This document shows positions 1-28,374 of a stretch of DNA of 32,239 bases, in pieces. The notes under the pieces were generated by a model. The model was not told where the DNA came from and ran no database searches. It saw only the letters and a list, made by a program, of their open reading frames with translations. Position numbers and translations under genes: made by a program. The DNA is from Campylobacteraceae bacterium (GTDB taxonomy: Bacteria; Campylobacterota; Campylobacteria; Campylobacterales; Campylobacteraceae): the NCBI GenBank assembly GCA_031257555.1, contig JAIROK010000023.1:1-32239 (forward strand), in the 5' to 3' direction. The stretch's first letter is position 1, and each line of letters starts with the position of its first letter.

Positions 1-789
1 ATGATATTTGAAAAGAGTTCCACAAGAACAAGAGTGAGCTTTGAAGTCGGAATTCATCAGCTTGGAGGCAAAGGACTGTTTTTATCGACAGATGATATAC
101 AGCTTGGACGCGGAGAGCCATTAAAAGATACGGCAAGGGTTTTAAGCCGAATGGTAGATATGGTAATGATAAGAACTTTTGGACAAGAGAGACTTGAGGA
201 GTTTGCAAAGTACTCGACGATTCCTTTGATAAGCGGACTTAGCGACACTTATCACCCAATGCAGCTTTTGGCTGATTATATGACTATTTGTGAATATGGT
301 AAAAATAAAGACTTGATAGTGGCATATGTAGGAGATGGCAATAATATCGCGAATTCATGGTTGATGCTCGCTTCAAAGATAGGGTTTGAATTTCGCATAT
401 CGACACCAAAAGGATACGAAGCAGACAAAAATGTTTTAAAAGATGCGTATGAGTTTGCAAAAAAAAGCGACTCAAAAATAGTTATATGCGAAAACCCCAA
501 AGATGCCGTCAAAGATGCCGGCGTTGTTACGACAGATACATGGGTATCTATGGGGCAAGAGAGTGAAAAGGAGAGGAGGATAAGGGACTTTGAAGGATTT
601 ATGGTTGATAGCAAGATGCTGGCTTTGGCACAAAAAGATGCAATGTTTTTGCACTGTTTGCCGGCATATAGAGGATATGAGGTGAGTGATGAAGTTTTTG
701 AAGAACATGCTAATGAGATATTTGACGAAGCTGAAAACAGACTGCATGTACAAAAAGCTGTTATGGTTTGGTTGGACGGGCAGAGGTAA
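1..789 (+). CDS. argF: Ornithine carbamoyltransferase, 5'-truncated by window edge
   Basis: This is the C-terminal roughly 260 residues of ornithine carbamoyltransferase, which joins carbamoyl phosphate and ornithine to give citrulline in cytoplasmic arginine synthesis. The carbamoyl-phosphate loop STRTR lies at about residues 7-11 of the visible part. In full-length enzymes of about 300-310 residues it lies about 45 residues from the N-terminus, so the true start is probably upstream of the window and the first ATG is internal. Further family marks are the SMGQE motif before the ornithine loop and the [10 protein letters not shown] signature with the catalytic Cys. The stop is followed 25 bases later by the start of a UPF0763 gene, and the hemN block follows. 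This order is familiar from Campylobacter. Function is near certain; only the start is missing. Confidence 0.95.
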
Positions 790-4870: not shown

Positions 4871-6050
4871 GTTTTTGCTCCTTTAATATACAAATTTGCT
4901 TAAGTCAAAATAGCACCTAAATATCGAATTTATGCGAGCAACTATATATCATTAGGCATAATTTTTAGATTAAACGAAAAGATTATATCTTAATTTAACT
5001 TAATATTATATTTGATTACAATAATTTGAATTTGGATTAATAATTAAAGGATAATTGTTTATTATTATTGCTGATACATTCATTATGCACTTTAAAATTA
5101 TATATTTGTATTATCGATATTTTTATTTTTAATGATATTTGAAACTTATTTTTTATTTTGTTTTTAATTTTTTCTATTTTCATATCTTTTTTTAAGCATT
5201 CTTTTTGTTTTCATATCATGATTTATTAATTAATATCTATTAATTATTATCTTTGTTAATTTTAGTAAATACTAAAGACACATGAATTAATTATAATTAT
5301 GATTAATTTTATTATTATAATATTTTTGTTAATAACTAATAAAATTAATATTAAATAATACTCCAATGTTTTTCAATACTATGTGATAGTAAATGCAGAT
5401 GATACATTTCTTAAGAGCCATTATTTAAAAGGCAAACCCTTTTATTTATTTAAAAATTTTAAAAAAACTTTTATATTAAATATTTAAGAAAATATACAGT
5501 AAAAATTATTTCTTTTTTTATCGCAAAGGAATGGAAATTTGCAAAATATATTTTTAAGCATGCGATTGATTGCATGAGATATATTTTAAAAAATTTAAAA
5601 CAGCTGTTTTTGTTGTTTGTAAATTATGTATCATATTTGTATCAAGGCGATGAAATATTTTTATTATTGAACGAAATGGTATTGTGCAATGTGATACAGT
5701 TTAAGATAAGATTGGTAGTTATGAATTTGCGTTTTTTTTAGACGGTATTCTATTTTAGTGAAATCACAAGAACGGTTTATAGGAAAGCCAATCTTTAAAT
5801 TATTTTGCACGGACAAAATGAAATCTATTGCCTAAAATACATCAAAAAACAAAACAATCATGCCAAGCTTTATCATTGTATCCGGCTATTGTAAAAATGC
5901 TGTCTTTTTAAAATCGCAAAAACAGCCGCAAATCTATACTTTGTAAGTTTTGCGTACAAATATATATCGCTACTGTTTATTTTAAGCTTTAAATTATCTA
6001 TTTTTTTGATTATGCTGCCCACAAACAAGAGACATAGGGCTTCGAAGAAA
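4871..6050. other. AT-rich intergenic stretch without convincing genes
   Basis: These 1180 bases lie between the response regulator and ureG and are strongly A+T-rich, especially about 4970-5520, where runs of TTAATTATTA-like sequence dominate. I find no protein with a ribosome site, no tRNA and no long exact repeat. On the minus strand next to ureG (about 5890-6050) a frame stays open for about 60 codons but has no ATG start or recognisable motif, so it may be a remnant. The stretch presumably carries the promoter of the response regulator and the end of the urease transcript. Confidence 0.5.
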
Positions 6051-13482: not shown

Positions 13483-15051
13483 TCAATCCTCCGCATCTCT
13501 GCCCTTTTGAGGGAAAAGTCCCCGCGGGTGTTTTCTGATAAACAGTATTACTATAACAAGTATGATTACTTTTGCAAGAACGGCGCCTGAAAGCGGTTCT
13601 ATAATCTTATTTACCTCACCCAGCGTAAACGCCCCTATGAGCGTTCCCCACAAATTTCCAACGCCTCCGAATACCACAACCATGAAAGAGTCCACTATAT
13701 AAGCTTGTCCCAGATTTGGTCCTACATTTGTAAGCTGACTTAAAGCAACTCCCGCAACTCCGGCAATCCCTGCGCCTATACCGAAAGTCAAAGCGTCCAC
13801 AAAGCTTGTTTTTATCCCCATAGCCTGCGCCATGCTTCTGTTTTGCGAGACTGCGCGCACTTTCAATCCAAGCGAAGTTTTTTTCAAAATAAACAGCGCA
13901 AATGCAAAAACAAGCAGAGTGAAGATAATGATATAAAATCTATTGTATGTGAGTGAGAAAATACTGTTTATCTCAAACGAACCGCTCATCCATTCGGGCG
14001 TTTTTACCTCTTTATTTAGCGGCGAATAGATAGTGCGCACGAGTTGTTGGAGTATGAGGCTTATTCCAAATGTAGCAAGCAGCGCTTCAAGGGGTCGTGA
14101 GTAAAGATGTCTTAACACCAGTCTTTCTATCAAGATGCCAACCAAAGCGCTTACTAAAAACGCTATGGGAATGGCTATAATCACAGAGTATTCTATAAAA
14201 TTTGGCATAATCTGCTGAATCGTATATGTCGTATATGCTCCTATCATTATGAGTTCCCCATGAGCCATATTGATAACTTTCATAACGCCAAACGTTATGG
14301 CAAGCCCCATCGCCGCCAAAAGCAGTATGGAGCCAGCGCTCAAGCCAAAATAGAGCGTTTCCAAAACAGAGTAAAATCTTTTGGCATTTTCTATTTTTTT
14401 AATGGAGGCGGTTATCTCTTTTTTGTATGAGATGCCCTCGATATCGTTTAACTCATTTAGTGTTTGAAGCGCTATAGGAGAGAGCGAATCTCCAAGGGCG
14501 TTTATGGCTTTTTGCTGTTCGCCGCCGCTTTTAAATTTAGCGTCTAAAACAGACAAAGACTCGTTTAAAATCTCTTTTATCTTTTTATTGTCCTCTTTTG
14601 CTAAGAGTTCATACAAAAGAGCATAATCTTTCTCTTCAACATTTGAAAGCAGCTCTTTTGCGGCATTTAGTCTTATTTTTGCGTCTTGTGAGACTAAGTT
14701 TACCGCGGCAAGTTCGGAGCGCAGGATAGTTCTTAGTCTGTTGTTTATCGTGATTTTGCTAATTTCGCTTTCGTCGATTTCGAGTTTTTTGCCGCTTAGG
14801 ATATCTACAATATCCGATTTGTCTTGATACACAAGAGAGTTTTGCGCGCTCTTATAAAGGTTCCCCGATAGCATTTGCGAAAATACAAAAGGCAGTCTCT
14901 CATCATTTTTATATCCGCTTGACAACTCTTTTATGGCGTCCTCTTTTTGCGCAAAATTTTCAGCTTCGGACAGTTTTACCAAATCATCTTCAAAACTTGC
15001 GCCAAAAGCCGCCATGGCTATCAACAGCAAAGTTATACAGACTCTCTTCAT
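13483..15051 (-). CDS. urtB: Urea ABC transporter permease UrtB with extracytoplasmic N-terminal domain
   Basis: This 522-residue LivH-type permease has a signal peptide (MKRVCITLLLIAMAAFGA, likely cut after residue 18). A helical periplasmic region of about 200 residues follows, with HEAT-like helical pairs such as DAKIRLNAAKELLSNVEEKD. From about residue 225 there is the permease domain with roughly eight membrane segments. The long N-terminal extension is normal for UrtB and separates it from amino-acid permeases, which are about 300 residues. Motifs include AMGLAITFGVMKVINMAHGE and VFGGVGNLWGTLIGA. It is preceded by a 1.57-kb repeat region instead of by urtA directly, and its stop lies 1 base before urtC. 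Confidence 0.94.
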   Translation of the reverse strand: MKRVCITLLLIAMAAFGASFEDDLVKLSEAENFAQKEDAIKELSSGYKNDERLPFVFSQMLSGNLYKSAQNSLVYQDKSDIVDILSGKKLEIDESEISKITINNRLRTILRSELAAVNLVSQDAKIRLNAAKELLSNVEEKDYALLYELLAKEDNKKIKEILNESLSVLDAKFKSGGEQQKAINALGDSLSPIALQTLNELNDIEGISYKKEITASIKKIENAKRFYSVLETLYFGLSAGSILLLAAMGLAITFGVMKVINMAHGELIMIGAYTTYTIQQIMPNFIEYSVIIAIPIAFLVSALVGILIERLVLRHLYSRPLEALLATFGISLILQQLVRTIYSPLNKEVKTPEWMSGSFEINSIFSLTYNRFYIIIFTLLVFAFALFILKKTSLGLKVRAVSQNRSMAQAMGIKTSFVDALTFGIGAGIAGVAGVALSQLTNVGPNLGQAYIVDSFMVVVFGGVGNLWGTLIGAFTLGEVNKIIEPLSGAVLAKVIILVIVILFIRKHPRGLFPQKGRDAED

Positions 15052-15583
15052 TTTTTACCTCTTATCGGCACTGGCAATGCGCGATTTGTTTTTGCCGCTT
15101 TTACAGAAAAAAACATGTGGGCGAATTTTTCACTGTTTTCATATCCTTTAGCGGCAAATAGTTTTAATAAATCCGTACAAACCATTTTCATCTCCTGCAT
15201 CCAAGTTTTTATCACGATACCCGCAGTGTGCAAGTATCATTGTTTGTTTCAATTTTTTCACCGCTTAAGCACATTTCATTTTATGTGCAAAAATCATTAA
15301 TTTCTATGCTCTTTTTACGCAAAATCTGATTTTGACAAATCATCAAAAATATATCCTCCCTCATTTCTTACCTCTGCAAGCGATAAATTGTCTTCGTTTG
15401 AGATATTACCGCCTGTATCAAAAGTGATTTTTGATAATTTTTCATCATCTATTCACACTCTTGCGTTCAAATCTTTTATCGCAACAGTGTGCGAATTGAT
15501 TTTGATAAATATCAAAAATCTACTTTTTTCATTTGCCACTTTCCTGCCACGACGATAGCAATATATAACTGCTCCTTAGTTTT

Positions 15584-15602
15584 AAATGAGAATATCTCAT
15601 TT
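15584..15602. repeat. Perfect 8-bp inverted repeat in the urtA-urtB gap
   Basis: AAATGAGA-ATA-TCTCATTT is a perfect 8-bp palindrome with a 3-base loop. A degenerate relative (ATATCCCATTT region, near 16465-16477) occurs in another unit of the array. Whether it acts as an RNA hairpin or a protein site is not visible. Confidence 0.6.
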
Positions 15603-15816
15603 GTTTTAATTTTCAGCTTCTTGAATGAACAAGAGAGTTTTTTGCAAAATTAGCTCAAAAAATGCATGAAACTCTCATTTTTTTTACAAAATTTATGACA
15701 ACAATTGCAAATCTTTCTGCATCAAAGAGACTTTTGCTTTGGATAATTTTGACAAATCATCATCTATTTATCAAACCTGCATTCAAGTCTTTTATCACGA
15801 TACCCGCAGTGTGCGG

Positions 15817-15860
15817 ATTGATTTTGATAAATGTCAAAAACCTGCAAACTTTTTCCATTT
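15817..15860 (-). repeat. 44-bp exact repeat, copy 1
   Basis: Identical over 44 bases to 16396-16439, 579 bases away, in the same orientation. It contains TTGATAAATGTCAA and the conserved CCTGCAAACTTTTTCCATTT end. Similarity continues imperfectly to the left (CAGTGTGCG, then GCATTCAA). Such length of identity between otherwise diverged units suggests recent duplication, gene conversion or constraint. Confidence 0.9.
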
Positions 15861-16395
15861 TTACCGTTTTTCCGTCGATACCCGCAATGTATGGCTAACA
15901 TTTATAAAGTCCGCTATAGACAAGAGGGCTTTTTGTAAAAACCATTGTCGCCTCTATGTTCTTTGCGCAAAGTTTGATTTTGACAAATTATCAAATCTTA
16001 TGTGTGGCTCATTTGTGCCAAAATTACTTACAAGCCTTTGTTTTACAGTATGACCTGTACAAAAAGATGCTTTGATTTTAAGCAATTTTGACAAATCATC
16101 ATCCATATGAACCATTTCTTGCATTCAAGTCCTTTGCCGCTCCAAGCGCATTTTATTTTACACGCAAAAGAGTTTCTTGCAAAAACTGTGCAAACTCATT
16201 TTCATACAAAGTCAGGTTTTGATAAATCGCCGCCTTGTTCATTTTCTGCTCTTTTTGCCTTTTAGGGCAATGAGCTGTTTAGAAAACCGCTGCCGTCTTT
16301 GTTTAGACAAATTACCGTTTACATCAAAAGTGACTTTGACTTTTGATAATTATTCACACTCTTGCATTCAAATCTTTCATCGCGGCAGTGTGCGA

Positions 16396-16439
16396 ATTGA
16401 TTTTGATAAATGTCAAAAACCTGCAAACTTTTTCCATTT
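16396..16439 (-). repeat. 44-bp exact repeat, copy 2
   Basis: Second copy of the 44-base element at 15817-15860. A third, less conserved version lies at about 15496-15534, with ATTGATTTTGATAAATATCA followed by diverged sequence. Confidence 0.9.
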
Positions 16440-16598
16440 CACCGCTTGTATTCGCAAAGTTGAAAATATCCCATTTCAAATTTTTAGCCTCTTGAATGCG
16501 CTTTGTTTTATATGTAAGAGAGTTTTTTGCAAAACTGCTCAAATTTGCGCAAAGGCAACTCTTTTTAGCCTCTTGCAATGCGTGAAAATACCCTCTTG

Positions 16599-16617
16599 GT
16601 GCGGATAGTCTCCGCAC
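16599..16617 (-). terminator. Stem-loop directly after urtA
   Basis: GTGCGGA and TCCGCAC form a perfect 7-bp GC-rich stem with a 5-base loop, starting 6 bases after the urtA stop on the transcribed (minus) strand. No T-run follows at once. It may be a partial terminator or an mRNA-stabilising element that lets the binding protein be made in excess over the membrane parts, as is common in ABC operons. Confidence 0.5.
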
Positions 16618-16623
16618 TAAAGA

Positions 16624-17889
16624 TTATTTCAGGCACTTTTTTGTTTTGGTGTTGTAATTGCCGCAGTTGACAGGCTTTGTCCAGTCAGCTTCCAAATCTT
16701 TGCTGCCGTCTAAAAAGTCGCTCCAAGCGTCGCCCTCAACCAAACCTTTTGTCTGCCAAACGGTTTCAAATTGACCGTTGGCTTGAATTTCGCCTATAAG
16801 AACAGGCTTTGTTATATGGTGGTTTTTAAGCATTACAGCCGTACCACCGGTAAGATTGGGCACGCTTATACCGATAATCGCTTCAGAGACTTTGCCGACA
16901 TTTGTGCTTTTGGCTTTTTCTACGGCTTTCACCCACATGTTAAATCCTATGTATGTAGCCTCCATAGGGTCGTTTGTGACTCTTTTATTGTCTTTTATAA
17001 ATGCTTTCCATGATTTGATAAAAGCGTCGTTTGCGGGAGATTTCACGCTTTGAAAATAGTTCCATGCAGCCAAATGTCCGACAAGAGGCTTTGTGTCTAT
17101 GCCGGCAAGCTCTTCTTCTCCTACCGAAAATGCAATAACGGGAATGTTATCCGCGCTCACGCCCTGATTTGCAAGCTCTTTGTAAAACGGCACATTTGCA
17201 TCTCCGTTGATAGTTGAGACAACCGCCGTTTTTTTGCCTGCACTGCTAAATTTTTTGATATCGCTTACTATGCTTTGCCAGTCAGAGTGTCCAAACGGCG
17301 TGTAGTTGATCAAAATATCCTCGCTTTTGACGCCTTTTGATTTCAGATAAGTTTCCAAAATCTTATTTGTGGTGCGCGGATATACATAATCCGTTCCGGC
17401 AAGCACCCATCTTTTGACACCAACCTCATTTGCCAAGTAGTCAATCGCGGGAATTGCCTGCTGATTTGGAGCAGCACCCGTATAAAAGATATTTTTAGAC
17501 GACTCTTCGCCCTCATATTGCACGGGGTAGAAAAGCAAGCCGTTGTTTGCTTCAACCACAGGAAGAACCGCTTTTCGCGATACGGACGTCCAACATCCGA
17601 ATATAACGTCAACCTTGTCTTTGGTCAAAAGTTCGCCCGCTTTTTCAGCAAAAAGCGGCCAGTCGGATGCGGGGTCAACCACTACGGCTTCAAGCTTTTT
17701 GCCAAGAAGCCCGCCTTTTTTATTTTGTTCGTCTATCAACATCAAAACCGTATCTTTTAATGTTGTTTCAGAGATTGCCATTGTTCCTGAAAGCGAATGC
17801 AAAACGCCCACTTTGATAGTATCGGCAGCTTCAATCGACATACAAGCAAAGGCAATCAATACCGCCGCGGCAAGTTTTGAAATCCTCAT
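16624..17889 (-). CDS. urtA: Urea ABC transporter periplasmic substrate-binding protein UrtA
   Basis: This is a 421-residue type-1 periplasmic binding protein with a signal peptide cut near residues 21-22 (SIEA before ADTIKVG). It captures urea for the UrtBCDE importer. Characteristic parts are TIKVGVLHSLSGTMAISET at the mature N-terminus, DPASDWPLFAEKAGELL, the VIFGCWTSVSRKAVLPV segment and LLFYPVQYEGEESS, which distinguish UrtA from branched-chain amino-acid binding proteins. The C-terminus ends in WTKPVNCGNYNTKTKKCLK with two cysteines. The ATG has AAGGAG at 17896-17901 upstream. It is the first gene of the urea operon, and is followed by a stem-loop and the repeat array. Confidence 0.97.
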   Translation of the reverse strand: MRISKLAAAVLIAFACMSIEAADTIKVGVLHSLSGTMAISETTLKDTVLMLIDEQNKKGGLLGKKLEAVVVDPASDWPLFAEKAGELLTKDKVDVIFGCWTSVSRKAVLPVVEANNGLLFYPVQYEGEESSKNIFYTGAAPNQQAIPAIDYLANEVGVKRWVLAGTDYVYPRTTNKILETYLKSKGVKSEDILINYTPFGHSDWQSIVSDIKKFSSAGKKTAVVSTINGDANVPFYKELANQGVSADNIPVIAFSVGEEELAGIDTKPLVGHLAAWNYFQSVKSPANDAFIKSWKAFIKDNKRVTNDPMEATYIGFNMWVKAVEKAKSTNVGKVSEAIIGISVPNLTGGTAVMLKNHHITKPVLIGEIQANGQFETVWQTKGLVEGDAWSDFLDGSKDLEADWTKPVNCGNYNTKTKKCLK

Positions 17890-26987: not shown

Positions 26988-27089
26988 GTTGGTACTTTAT
27001 TGATTATATATAGATATTGTAGCGCAAAACAGCAGAGATAAAAATAAAAAAGTTAGGATAAAACGTCTGTTCGTGTTAAATTAAACGAG

Positions 27090-27166
27090 TGGTGCGCTCG
27101 AAGAGATTCGAACTCATGACCTTCTGAACCGCAATCAGATGCTCTATCCAGCTGAGCTACGAGCGC
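27090..27166 (-). tRNA. tRNA-Arg (GCG)
   Basis: A 77-nt cloverleaf with the CCA end encoded. The acceptor GCGCTCG pairs with CGAGCGC, the anticodon stem TCTGA/TCAGA encloses loop TTGCGGT, giving anticodon GCG (reads CGC), and the T arm contains GTTCGAATC-like sequence. It stands alone on the strand opposite to the other tRNAs. Confidence 0.93.
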
Positions 27167-27553
27167 ACAAATTTTAAGGGTGGTATTATAACGGCTATTT
27201 CCTTAAAATTACGATATTTTGAAAATAATCCACATGTATATTTGTCAAATCTTTCATATCTTTTATATTATTCACAAGCTGTAAAATTGTCGTATCGTTA
27301 TCTCTTTTGGTGTTCAATAATAATGGAATATAAAAATTTTTTTATCGTTTTATAATTTTTTGTCTCATTGTGAAGCATACATTTAAGTAGATAATATAAA
27401 AATGCGTATATATTAATAAAAACAGTGTATAAGTCTTGACAAAAGCAGGCGTTTTGTGTAAACTTTCAACCTTGTTTTTATTTGTGAATATTTAAAAACC
27501 TTGACTGTTTTTAGGTTTTTGCAGACAAAATCAAGACTATAATAGTGTTTTAA
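27167..27553. other. Intergenic region with the tRNA-cluster promoter
   Basis: No protein gene is supported in these 387 bases between tRNA-Arg(GCG) and tRNA-Pro. The 3' end carries the promoter of the plus-strand tRNA cluster; the rest is AT-rich without obvious repeats. Confidence 0.5.
27538..27543 (+). promoter_or_regulatory. -10 element of the tRNA cluster
   Basis: A perfect TATAAT lies 10 bases before the first base of tRNA-Pro. A TTGACT at 27501-27506 is too far away (31 bases) to be its -35 partner. Confidence 0.6.
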
Positions 27554-27630
<77 letters not shown>

Positions 27631-27641
27631 TTTTTTAGCAT

Positions 27642-27719
27642 GGTGAGTTTAGCTCAGTCGGTTAGAGCATCAGATTGTGGTCCTGAGGGTCGTGGGTTCG
27701 ATTCCCATAACTCACCCCA
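27642..27719 (+). tRNA. tRNA-His (GTG)
   Basis: 78 nt counting the extra 5' G (position -1) that is typical of tRNA-His and faces C73. Acceptor GTGAGTT/AACTCAC; loop TTGTGGT gives GTG; the CCA is encoded. Confidence 0.95.
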
Positions 27720-27728
27720 TTTGAGTAT

Positions 27729-27805
27729 GCGCTCGTAGCTCAATTGGATAGAGCAACAGACTTCGGATCTGTGGGTTGTAGGTTCGACTCCTATCGAGCG
27801 TACCA
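27729..27805 (+). tRNA. tRNA-Arg (TCG)
   Basis: 77 nt with encoded CCA. Acceptor GCGCTCG/CGAGCGT (first pair G-T); anticodon stem ACAGA/TCTGT with loop CTTCGGA gives TCG. Its acceptor 5' strand is identical to that of tRNA-Arg(GCG) at 27090-27166. Confidence 0.95.
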
Positions 27806-27881
27806 TCAGAGAAGCTCCAATTTTTTGGCTTATCTGAAGTAAAAAGTTGCATGACAGATTTTGTCAGGCATAATTTAATAT

Positions 27882-27958
27882 GCGCTCATAGCTCAGCTGG
27901 ATAGAGCAACGGCCTTCTAAGCCGTAGGTCAGAGGTTCGAATCCTCTTGGGCGTACCA
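27882..27958 (+). tRNA. tRNA-Arg (TCT)
   Basis: 77 nt with encoded CCA. Anticodon stem ACGGC/GCCGT with loop CTTCTAA gives TCT (reads AGA/AGG). Acceptor GCGCTCA/TGGGCGT includes G-T pairs. Confidence 0.95.
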
Positions 27959-28062
27959 TTTATCGGCAAAGTTATCTTTGCGAATATAAACCCCGTGTAG
28001 CAGGGTGAATGTTTTTGACATTTACGTAAAAGCGCTTGCTAAATTGGGCAGAGTTTGAATTT

Positions 28063-28068
28063 TATACT
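28063..28068 (+). promoter_or_regulatory. Possible -10 element before tRNA-Leu
   Basis: TATACT lies 29 bases before tRNA-Leu, in a gap of 139 bases after tRNA-Arg(TCT). The wider gap suggests that tRNA-Leu may have its own promoter. Confidence 0.35.
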
Positions 28069-28097
28069 ATAAGCGTAAGTCTTATAACGTTTTTTGT

Positions 28098-28182
28098 GCG
28101 GATGTGGTGAAATTGGTAGACACACCAGACTTAGGATCTGGCGCCGCGAGGCATGGGAGTTCGAGTCTCTTCATCCGCACCA
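28098..28182 (+). tRNA. tRNA-Leu (TAG)
   Basis: 85-nt class II tRNA with a long variable arm and encoded CCA. Acceptor GCGGATG/CATCCGC; anticodon stem CCAGA/TCTGG with loop CTTAGGA gives TAG. A run of broken genes begins about 190 bases downstream. Confidence 0.95.
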
Positions 28183-28374
28183 TCTAAATTATTCACCAAA
28201 ACATAATAACATGCACATCAATAAGCATATCAAATCAAAATTATCATTAAAAATTAAAATAGACAATTTTCACGCTTTTTAAGCCAAGTTTGTTTTAATC
28301 ATGCCGGAACACTTAGGGCTATTGGAGTAAGCAATCCATCAGAGTGTGTTATAACTATTAATTTGAAGGTTTTT

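What the first reader, a model, noticed from the sequence alone, without database searches (positions are those of the whole stretch)
15052..16598. Diverged tandem-repeat array inserted between urtA and urtB
The sequence shows about five units 243-342 bp apart, with shared cores and a 44-bp exact repeat, in a gap that is normally short in urt operons. Minus-strand translation of different units gives similar peptides (INPHTAGIVIKDLNAG, INSHTAAMKDLNARV, INSHTVAIKDLNARV; also DDLSKSDFA, DDDLSKLLKIK), interrupted by stops. It could be a decayed repeat-protein gene, or a non-coding array whose operon placement would strongly affect urtBCDE expression. Coding ancestry and any function are inference.
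Basis: partly seen in the sequence, partly recalled or inferred. Interest (0 to 1): 0.65.

Follow-up and report, generated by a model that had tools for sequence, protein, structure and literature searches.

The report
Decayed copies of urtB's start
The repeats between the urea-transporter genes urtA and urtB look like about five old, broken copies of the first ~80 codons of urtB itself, piled up by repeated duplication and left to decay; this is an unusual piece of genome debris, not a new gene or system.

Summary
The repeats are real. The urtA-urtB gap is 1572 bp, against 76, 205 and 226 bp in three congeners and 47-59 bp in two members of the order. It holds about five diverged units, including a 44-bp exact repeat (longest in 200 randomised sequences: 15). 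On the urt (minus) strand the units line up with the 5' end of urtB: ribosome-binding site, start codon and codons 1 to ~75. The landmark AAAACTCTCTTG, codons 70-74 of urtB, recurs at 16534, 16184, 15940, 15649 and, in degraded form, 15307, so real urtB is the next unit. urtB 5' ends of all seven species score in the top 5% of 1653 control windows, two in the top 0.1%. Stops, frameshifts and a later palindrome mark the copies as decayed. One relative (G002) has two shorter urtB-start fragments in its gap; contigs of three relatives break within 35 bp of the urtB start. Most likely this is neutral debris: a tandem duplication spanning a gene's start leaves one intact copy downstream. A conserved hairpin after urtA and a 47-aa ORF overlapping urtB's ATG leave a small regulatory possibility.

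The parts
13483..15051 (-). urtB, intact (522 aa, permease); its first ~225 bp are the parent sequence and the last unit of the repeat family
   Evidence: Pfam BPD_transp_2 2.6e-45; orthologues 73-88% identical in the genus; urtB5 matches to the array
16624..17889 (-). urtA, intact (421 aa, substrate-binding protein)
   Evidence: 93-96% identical in congeners
16596..16620 (-). stem-loop just after the urtA stop; present with different sequence but kept pairing in all seven urt loci folded
   Evidence: fold z -4.8; relatives fold at -18.6 to -26.8 kcal/mol
16509..16590 (-). unit 1, partial: tail of a urtB-start copy with landmark AAAACTCTCTT (16526-16516)
16159..16508 (-). unit 2 (350 bp): urtB-like start ATGGAAAAAGTTTGCAGG (ATG 16437-16435), peptide MEKVCRFLTFIKINSHTAAMKDLNARV then stop; ends with the landmark at 16184
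15915..16158 (-). unit 3 (244 bp): two DDLSK/FAQ segments (MDDDLSKLLKIK at 16103; FDNLSKSNFAQR near 15990); landmark at 15940; start segment lost
15624..15914 (-). unit 4 (291 bp), best preserved: start ATGGAAAAAGTTTGCAGG (ATG 15858-15856), GATGATGATTTGTCAAAATTATCCAAAGC (15764-15736, 23/29 identical to urtB 61-89), AAAACTCTCTTGT (15641-15629, identical to urtB 209-221)
   Evidence: SW z 5.0 to own urtB5 and 7.4 to that of G002
15282..15623 (-). unit 5 (342 bp): start ATGAAAAAAGTA (15532), frameshifted; IFDDLSKSDFA stop (15344-15309, ATTTTGCGTAAAAAGAG vs urtB ATTTTGCGCAAAAAGAG)
15420..15527 (.). quasi-palindrome inside unit 5 (self-complementary at 79% over 108 bp)
   Evidence: own-genome search E 5e-14 on the opposite strand; fold z -5.1
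15052..15281 (-). unit 6 prefix: degraded start, stem-loop at ~15205-15240, and a further urtB-like start leading into real urtB
15048..15191 (-). 47-aa ORF MKMVCTDLLKLFAAKGYENSEKFAHMFFSVKAAKTNRALPVPIRGKK whose stop overlaps the urtB start (ATGA); AGGAG 6 nt before its second ATG
   Evidence: read directly; its first 26 nt match the G006 urtB start

Best explanation
The array is a stack of about five decayed tandem copies of the start of urtB: a short upstream stretch with the ribosome-binding site, the ATG and roughly the first 75-80 codons, about 240-350 bp per unit. Repeated tandem duplication across the urtB start built it (inferred mechanism: replication slippage or unequal recombination). 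Such a duplication is nearly harmless, because the last copy always stays joined to the rest of urtB with its own ribosome-binding site, so the upstream partial copies are free to collect stops, frameshifts, internal duplications (about 108 bp in units 3 and 5, probably unit 2) and palindromes of the template-switch type. Shown: the array, the similarity to urtB's 5' end, the broken frames, the intact flanking genes and the absence of the array in congeners. Inferred: the duplication mechanism, and that the array has no selected function beyond lengthening the urtA-urtB spacer.
For: Ungapped matches of the gap to urtB(-20..+240) exceed expectation in every species tested: own 8 vs 1.8, G007 14 vs 1.8, G011 14 vs 0.9, G002 11 vs 1.4, G006 5 vs 1.4, G010 5 vs 1.5, G001 3 vs 1.0, and they sit at recurrent homologous points, namely the start, codons 21-30, codons 32-37 and codons 70-74. 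Summed over five units, the urtB 5' ends rank in the top 0-4.7% of 1653 control windows from the same loci, unit 4 reaching z 7.4 against G002. Of the real genes with long upstream regions tested, own urtB has the strongest match to its upstream DNA, z 4.7. The match is strand-specific: 17 hits on the urt strand against 4 on the other, 13 of the 17 in the first 400 bp of urtB. Units align from ATG to the landmark without forcing. G002 repeats the theme: its gap ends in a segment with 17 bp identical to its own urtB, GCTTTTGGCGTAAGTTT, and holds a second partial copy. Contigs of G002, G011 and G010 end 24 bp inside, 35 bp before and 12 bp before the urtB start, as repeats there would cause in short-read assembly.
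Against: Copies are old: single alignments are weak (best nhmmer hit in the gap E 0.025; best whole-gap DNA alignment 58 against a shuffle maximum of 60), and no tblastn match is significant alone. Some repeated stretches (KINSHTAAIKDLNARV, TFDTGGNISNEDN) have no counterpart in present urtB. The 205- and 226-bp gaps of G007 and G006 show no clear urtB copies. No strain of the same species was available to see a young copy.
Confidence: 0.8

Rival explanations
1. The array is kept because it tunes the operon: hairpins and short translated cistrons between urtA and urtB lower expression of urtB and the genes behind it relative to the binding protein UrtA, as intercistronic stem-loops do in other transporter operons.
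For: A stem-loop after urtA is kept, with changed sequence, in all seven loci folded. Two hairpins in the array fold far better than shuffles, z -5.1 and -4.1. The 47-aa ORF next to urtB has an AGGAG and overlaps the urtB start.
Against: The conserved stem-loop lies outside the array and exists without it. Congeners do with 76-226 bp. The equivalent hairpin of unit 2 folds no better than shuffles (z 0.2), so the hairpins are not kept across units. No Rfam match reaches threshold.
Confidence: 0.12
2. A decayed gene for a repeat protein, unrelated to urtB.
For: Units share peptides in minus-strand frames, partly absent from UrtB.
Against: No Pfam match for any unit peptide apart from one sub-threshold hit to DUF3772. 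No intact relative of a composite unit peptide in 13 congeners, only weak matches to pyrB-type genes. Repeated ribosome-binding-site-plus-ATG blocks like those of urtB are not expected inside one repeat gene, and the urtB signal would be coincidence.
Confidence: 0.05
3. Dispersed mobile hairpin elements (MITE- or REP-like) that happened to insert several times here.
For: Palindromic core in unit 5.
Against: No second copy elsewhere in the assembled 1.48 Mb, about 63% complete, nor a convincing one in 60 relatives (only 28-37 bp matches, E 4e-5 to 6e-4). The palindrome differs between units.
Confidence: 0.03

Closest known systems
Partial tandem gene duplications leaving truncated pseudogene copies (general bacterial phenomenon; own knowledge)
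   Same: Copies of one end of a gene lie head to tail beside the intact gene and have lost their reading frames.
   Different: About five successive copies of the same start region inside a conserved transporter operon, with nested internal duplications; to my knowledge usually one or two copies are seen.
Quasi-palindrome template switching (E. coli, PMC7202029; origin of RNA hairpins, PMC8794818; abstracts only read)
   Same: Long near-perfect hairpins arise by copying one arm from the other; would explain the palindrome in unit 5.
   Different: Here inferred from one sequence only; it is a secondary event on top of the duplications.
Intercistronic stem-loops after binding-protein genes in ABC-transporter operons, for example REP between malE and malF (own knowledge)
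   Same: A stem-loop follows urtA and its pairing is kept across the genus and order.
   Different: The stem-loop is separate from the array; no expression data.

Membership tests
Partial tandem duplication array of urtB | Units in head-to-tail order on one strand | tested here: met
Partial tandem duplication array of urtB | Units more similar to the urtB 5' end than to other sequence | tested here: met
Partial tandem duplication array of urtB | Intact full-length gene at one end, order of segments as in the gene | tested here: met
   urtB intact; start, codons 21-30 and codons 70-74 in order in unit 4; other units carry deletions or an extra internal copy
Partial tandem duplication array of urtB | A younger, near-identical copy seen in a strain of the species | not testable with these tools
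   no second genome of the species; G002 has only partial copies
Repeat-protein gene | Open frame or recognisable repeat family | tested here: not met
   stops in all frames; no Pfam hit above cut-off
REP/MITE-type dispersed element | Copies elsewhere in the genome | tested here: not met
   (assembly only about 63% complete)
Rfam structured RNA | Match at gathering score | tested here: not met
Regulatory intercistronic element | Effect on urtB expression | not testable with these tools
   needs RNA-seq or reporter fusions

The most novel reading that the evidence does not exclude
In this genus the urtB start is a recurrent duplication hotspot, and the stack of truncated start copies, some still with ribosome-binding sites and one whose stop overlaps the urtB start, acts as a dispensable, evolvable brake on translation of the urea permease genes relative to the binding protein.
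Probability: 0.08. Interest if true: 0.55.

Novelty: new variant of a known kind. Interest (0 to 1): 0.28.

Why it matters
It shows how a long, apparently structured intergenic array can arise from a simple rule: tandem duplications across a gene's start are tolerated because one intact copy always remains downstream. It is a caution against reading diverged intergenic repeats with peptide-like translations as new repeat proteins or regulatory arrays. If the urtB start is a true hotspot in the genus, it offers a natural series of ages for watching partial duplicates decay.

Tried and rejected
Whole-gap Smith-Waterman against urtB with shuffles gave only a suggestive score, and nhmmer with a urtB 5' profile gave E 0.025; short ungapped matches and unit-wise scores against real windows of the same loci were decisive. 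The unit boundaries used were chosen after seeing the landmark shared with urtB, so its ranks are somewhat optimistic; searches do not depend on them. tblastn of UrtB against the gap: no single significant hit. Pfam on unit peptides: nothing above cut-off. Composite unit peptide against the genus: only pyrB-type genes at E 0.03-0.2, taken as chance. Resemblance of KINSHTAAIKDLNARV to flagellin N-termini was considered from memory; the Pfam scan gave no flagellin match. Rfam: no match at threshold. Other copies in own genome or relatives by DNA: none convincing. A dN/dS test was not done: units 2 and 5 differ by only about 5 bases over the ~20 comparable codons (my count: 3 changed residues, 2 silent changes), too few to be informative. 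Literature searches found no description of this gap.

Full report
WHAT IS THERE. The window is a 32-kb contig of an incomplete genome bin (G000; 1.48 Mb in 136 contigs, 62.75% complete). A same-genus locus, JAISNG010000073.1, is titled a Campylobacteraceae MAG. On the minus strand lie urtA (17889-16624), a 1572-bp gap, urtB (15051-13483) and further genes in an order that suggests urtCDE and urease genes; those last names are from gene order and size, not tested here. urtA and urtB are intact and 93-96% and 82-88% identical in most congeners that have them, with one urtB at 73%.

The gap contains a 44-bp exact direct repeat (15817-15860 and 16396-16439), a 72-bp pair at 92% and a 55-bp pair at 98%. 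Randomised gaps never gave an exact repeat longer than 15; strong self-matches number 30 against 1.4 expected. Landmark spacings are 350, 244, 291 and 342 bp. Congeners have 76, 205 and 226 bp between the same genes and two more distant members of the order 47 and 59 bp. Among about 80 other urt loci most gaps are 50-380 bp, with one of 807 bp.

THE SOURCE OF THE UNITS. Reading the minus strand, the units begin with blocks such as GGTAAAAATGGAAAAAGTTTGCA (the G007 urtB start reads GGTAAAAAATGAAAAAAATTTGCA), continue with GATGATGATTTGTCAAAATTATCCAAAGC (own urtB codons 21-30: GAAGATGATTTGGTAAAACTGTCCGAAGC; G011: GAAGACGGTTTATCAAAATTATCAGAAGC) and ATTTTGCGTAAAAAGAG (urtB: ATTTTGCGCAAAAAGAG), and end with AAAACTCTCTTGT (identical in urtB, nt 209-221). 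The excess of such matches over other windows of the same loci is 3- to 15-fold in all seven species' urtB starts. A joint score over five units places every species' urtB 5' end in the top 5% of 1653 control windows, G011 above all of them and G002 above all but one. The match is confined to the correct strand and concentrated in the first 400 bp of urtB. Own urtB is the real gene with the strongest resemblance to its own upstream DNA among those tested (z 4.7). A multiple alignment of units with urtB starts of four species runs from ATG to the landmark. I conclude that the units are decayed partial copies of urtB's start. Because each copy is short and old, single alignments are weak; the case rests on the joint tests.

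HOW IT LIKELY AROSE. A tandem duplication covering the upstream flank and first part of a gene leaves a truncated copy upstream and a complete gene downstream, so it is tolerated and can be repeated. Nested offsets of about 108, 320-350, 580-600 and 870-910 bp point to duplications of duplications. Units 3 and 5, and probably unit 2, carry an extra internal copy of the codon 21-37 segment. Unit 5 has a 108-bp quasi-palindrome (79% self-complementary; fold z -5.1) that is not conserved as a stable hairpin in the homologous part of unit 2 (z 0.2), as expected of a later template-switch event (a known mechanism: PMC7202029, PMC8794818, abstracts only). These mechanistic steps are inferred.

RELATIVES. 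G002's gap (at least 329 bp, cut by a contig end) ends in a segment with 17 bp identical to its own urtB and holds a second partial copy. It also contains 42 bp, inverted and 90% identical, of a gene that reads like ribosomal protein S1 (gene name from my reading of the translation). Contigs of G002, G011 and G010 stop 24 bp inside, 35 bp before and 12 bp before the urtB start. Together these hint at a recurrent hotspot, but G006 and G007 show no clear copies.

FUNCTION. I found no sign that the array is selected. A stem-loop immediately after urtA is present, with changed sequence, in all seven urt loci folded and is a better candidate for regulation, but it is outside the array. A 47-aa ORF (15191-15048) with an AGGAG site and a stop overlapping the urtB start could couple translation; this is only a possibility. 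urtB keeps its own AGAGG site (read). Neutral debris is the best reading.

NOVELTY. Partial tandem duplication followed by decay is a known kind of event (own knowledge). What is unusual is the number of copies over one gene start and the hint of recurrence in the genus. That makes it a new variant of a known kind, of modest interest.

Noticed in passing
16596-16620 (minus strand) and the urt loci of G001, G002, G006, G007, G049, G055: A stem-loop follows the urtA stop codon in every locus folded, with different sequence but kept pairing; a likely terminator, attenuator or mRNA stabiliser of the urt operon.
   Followed up: partly
L044 (G002:C79) 1-329, minus strand; L171, L170: The urtA-urtB gap of relative G002 contains a 42-bp inverted fragment, 90% identical, of a ribosomal protein S1-like gene: a gene scrap captured in an intergenic region.
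   Followed up: partly
L166 (G011:C27), L167 (G002:C183), L168 (G010:C12): Contigs of three congeners end 35 bp before, 24 bp inside and 12 bp before the urtB start, as if repeats there broke the assemblies.
   Followed up: partly
4871-6050: A 1.18-kb AT-rich stretch without an ORF of 80 aa or more, downstream of the putative urease genes, with weak scattered matches elsewhere in the genome (best E 2e-4) and short AT-rich tandem repeats.
   Followed up: partly
27004-28298: A 1.3-kb stretch without any ORF of 80 aa or more.
   Followed up: no
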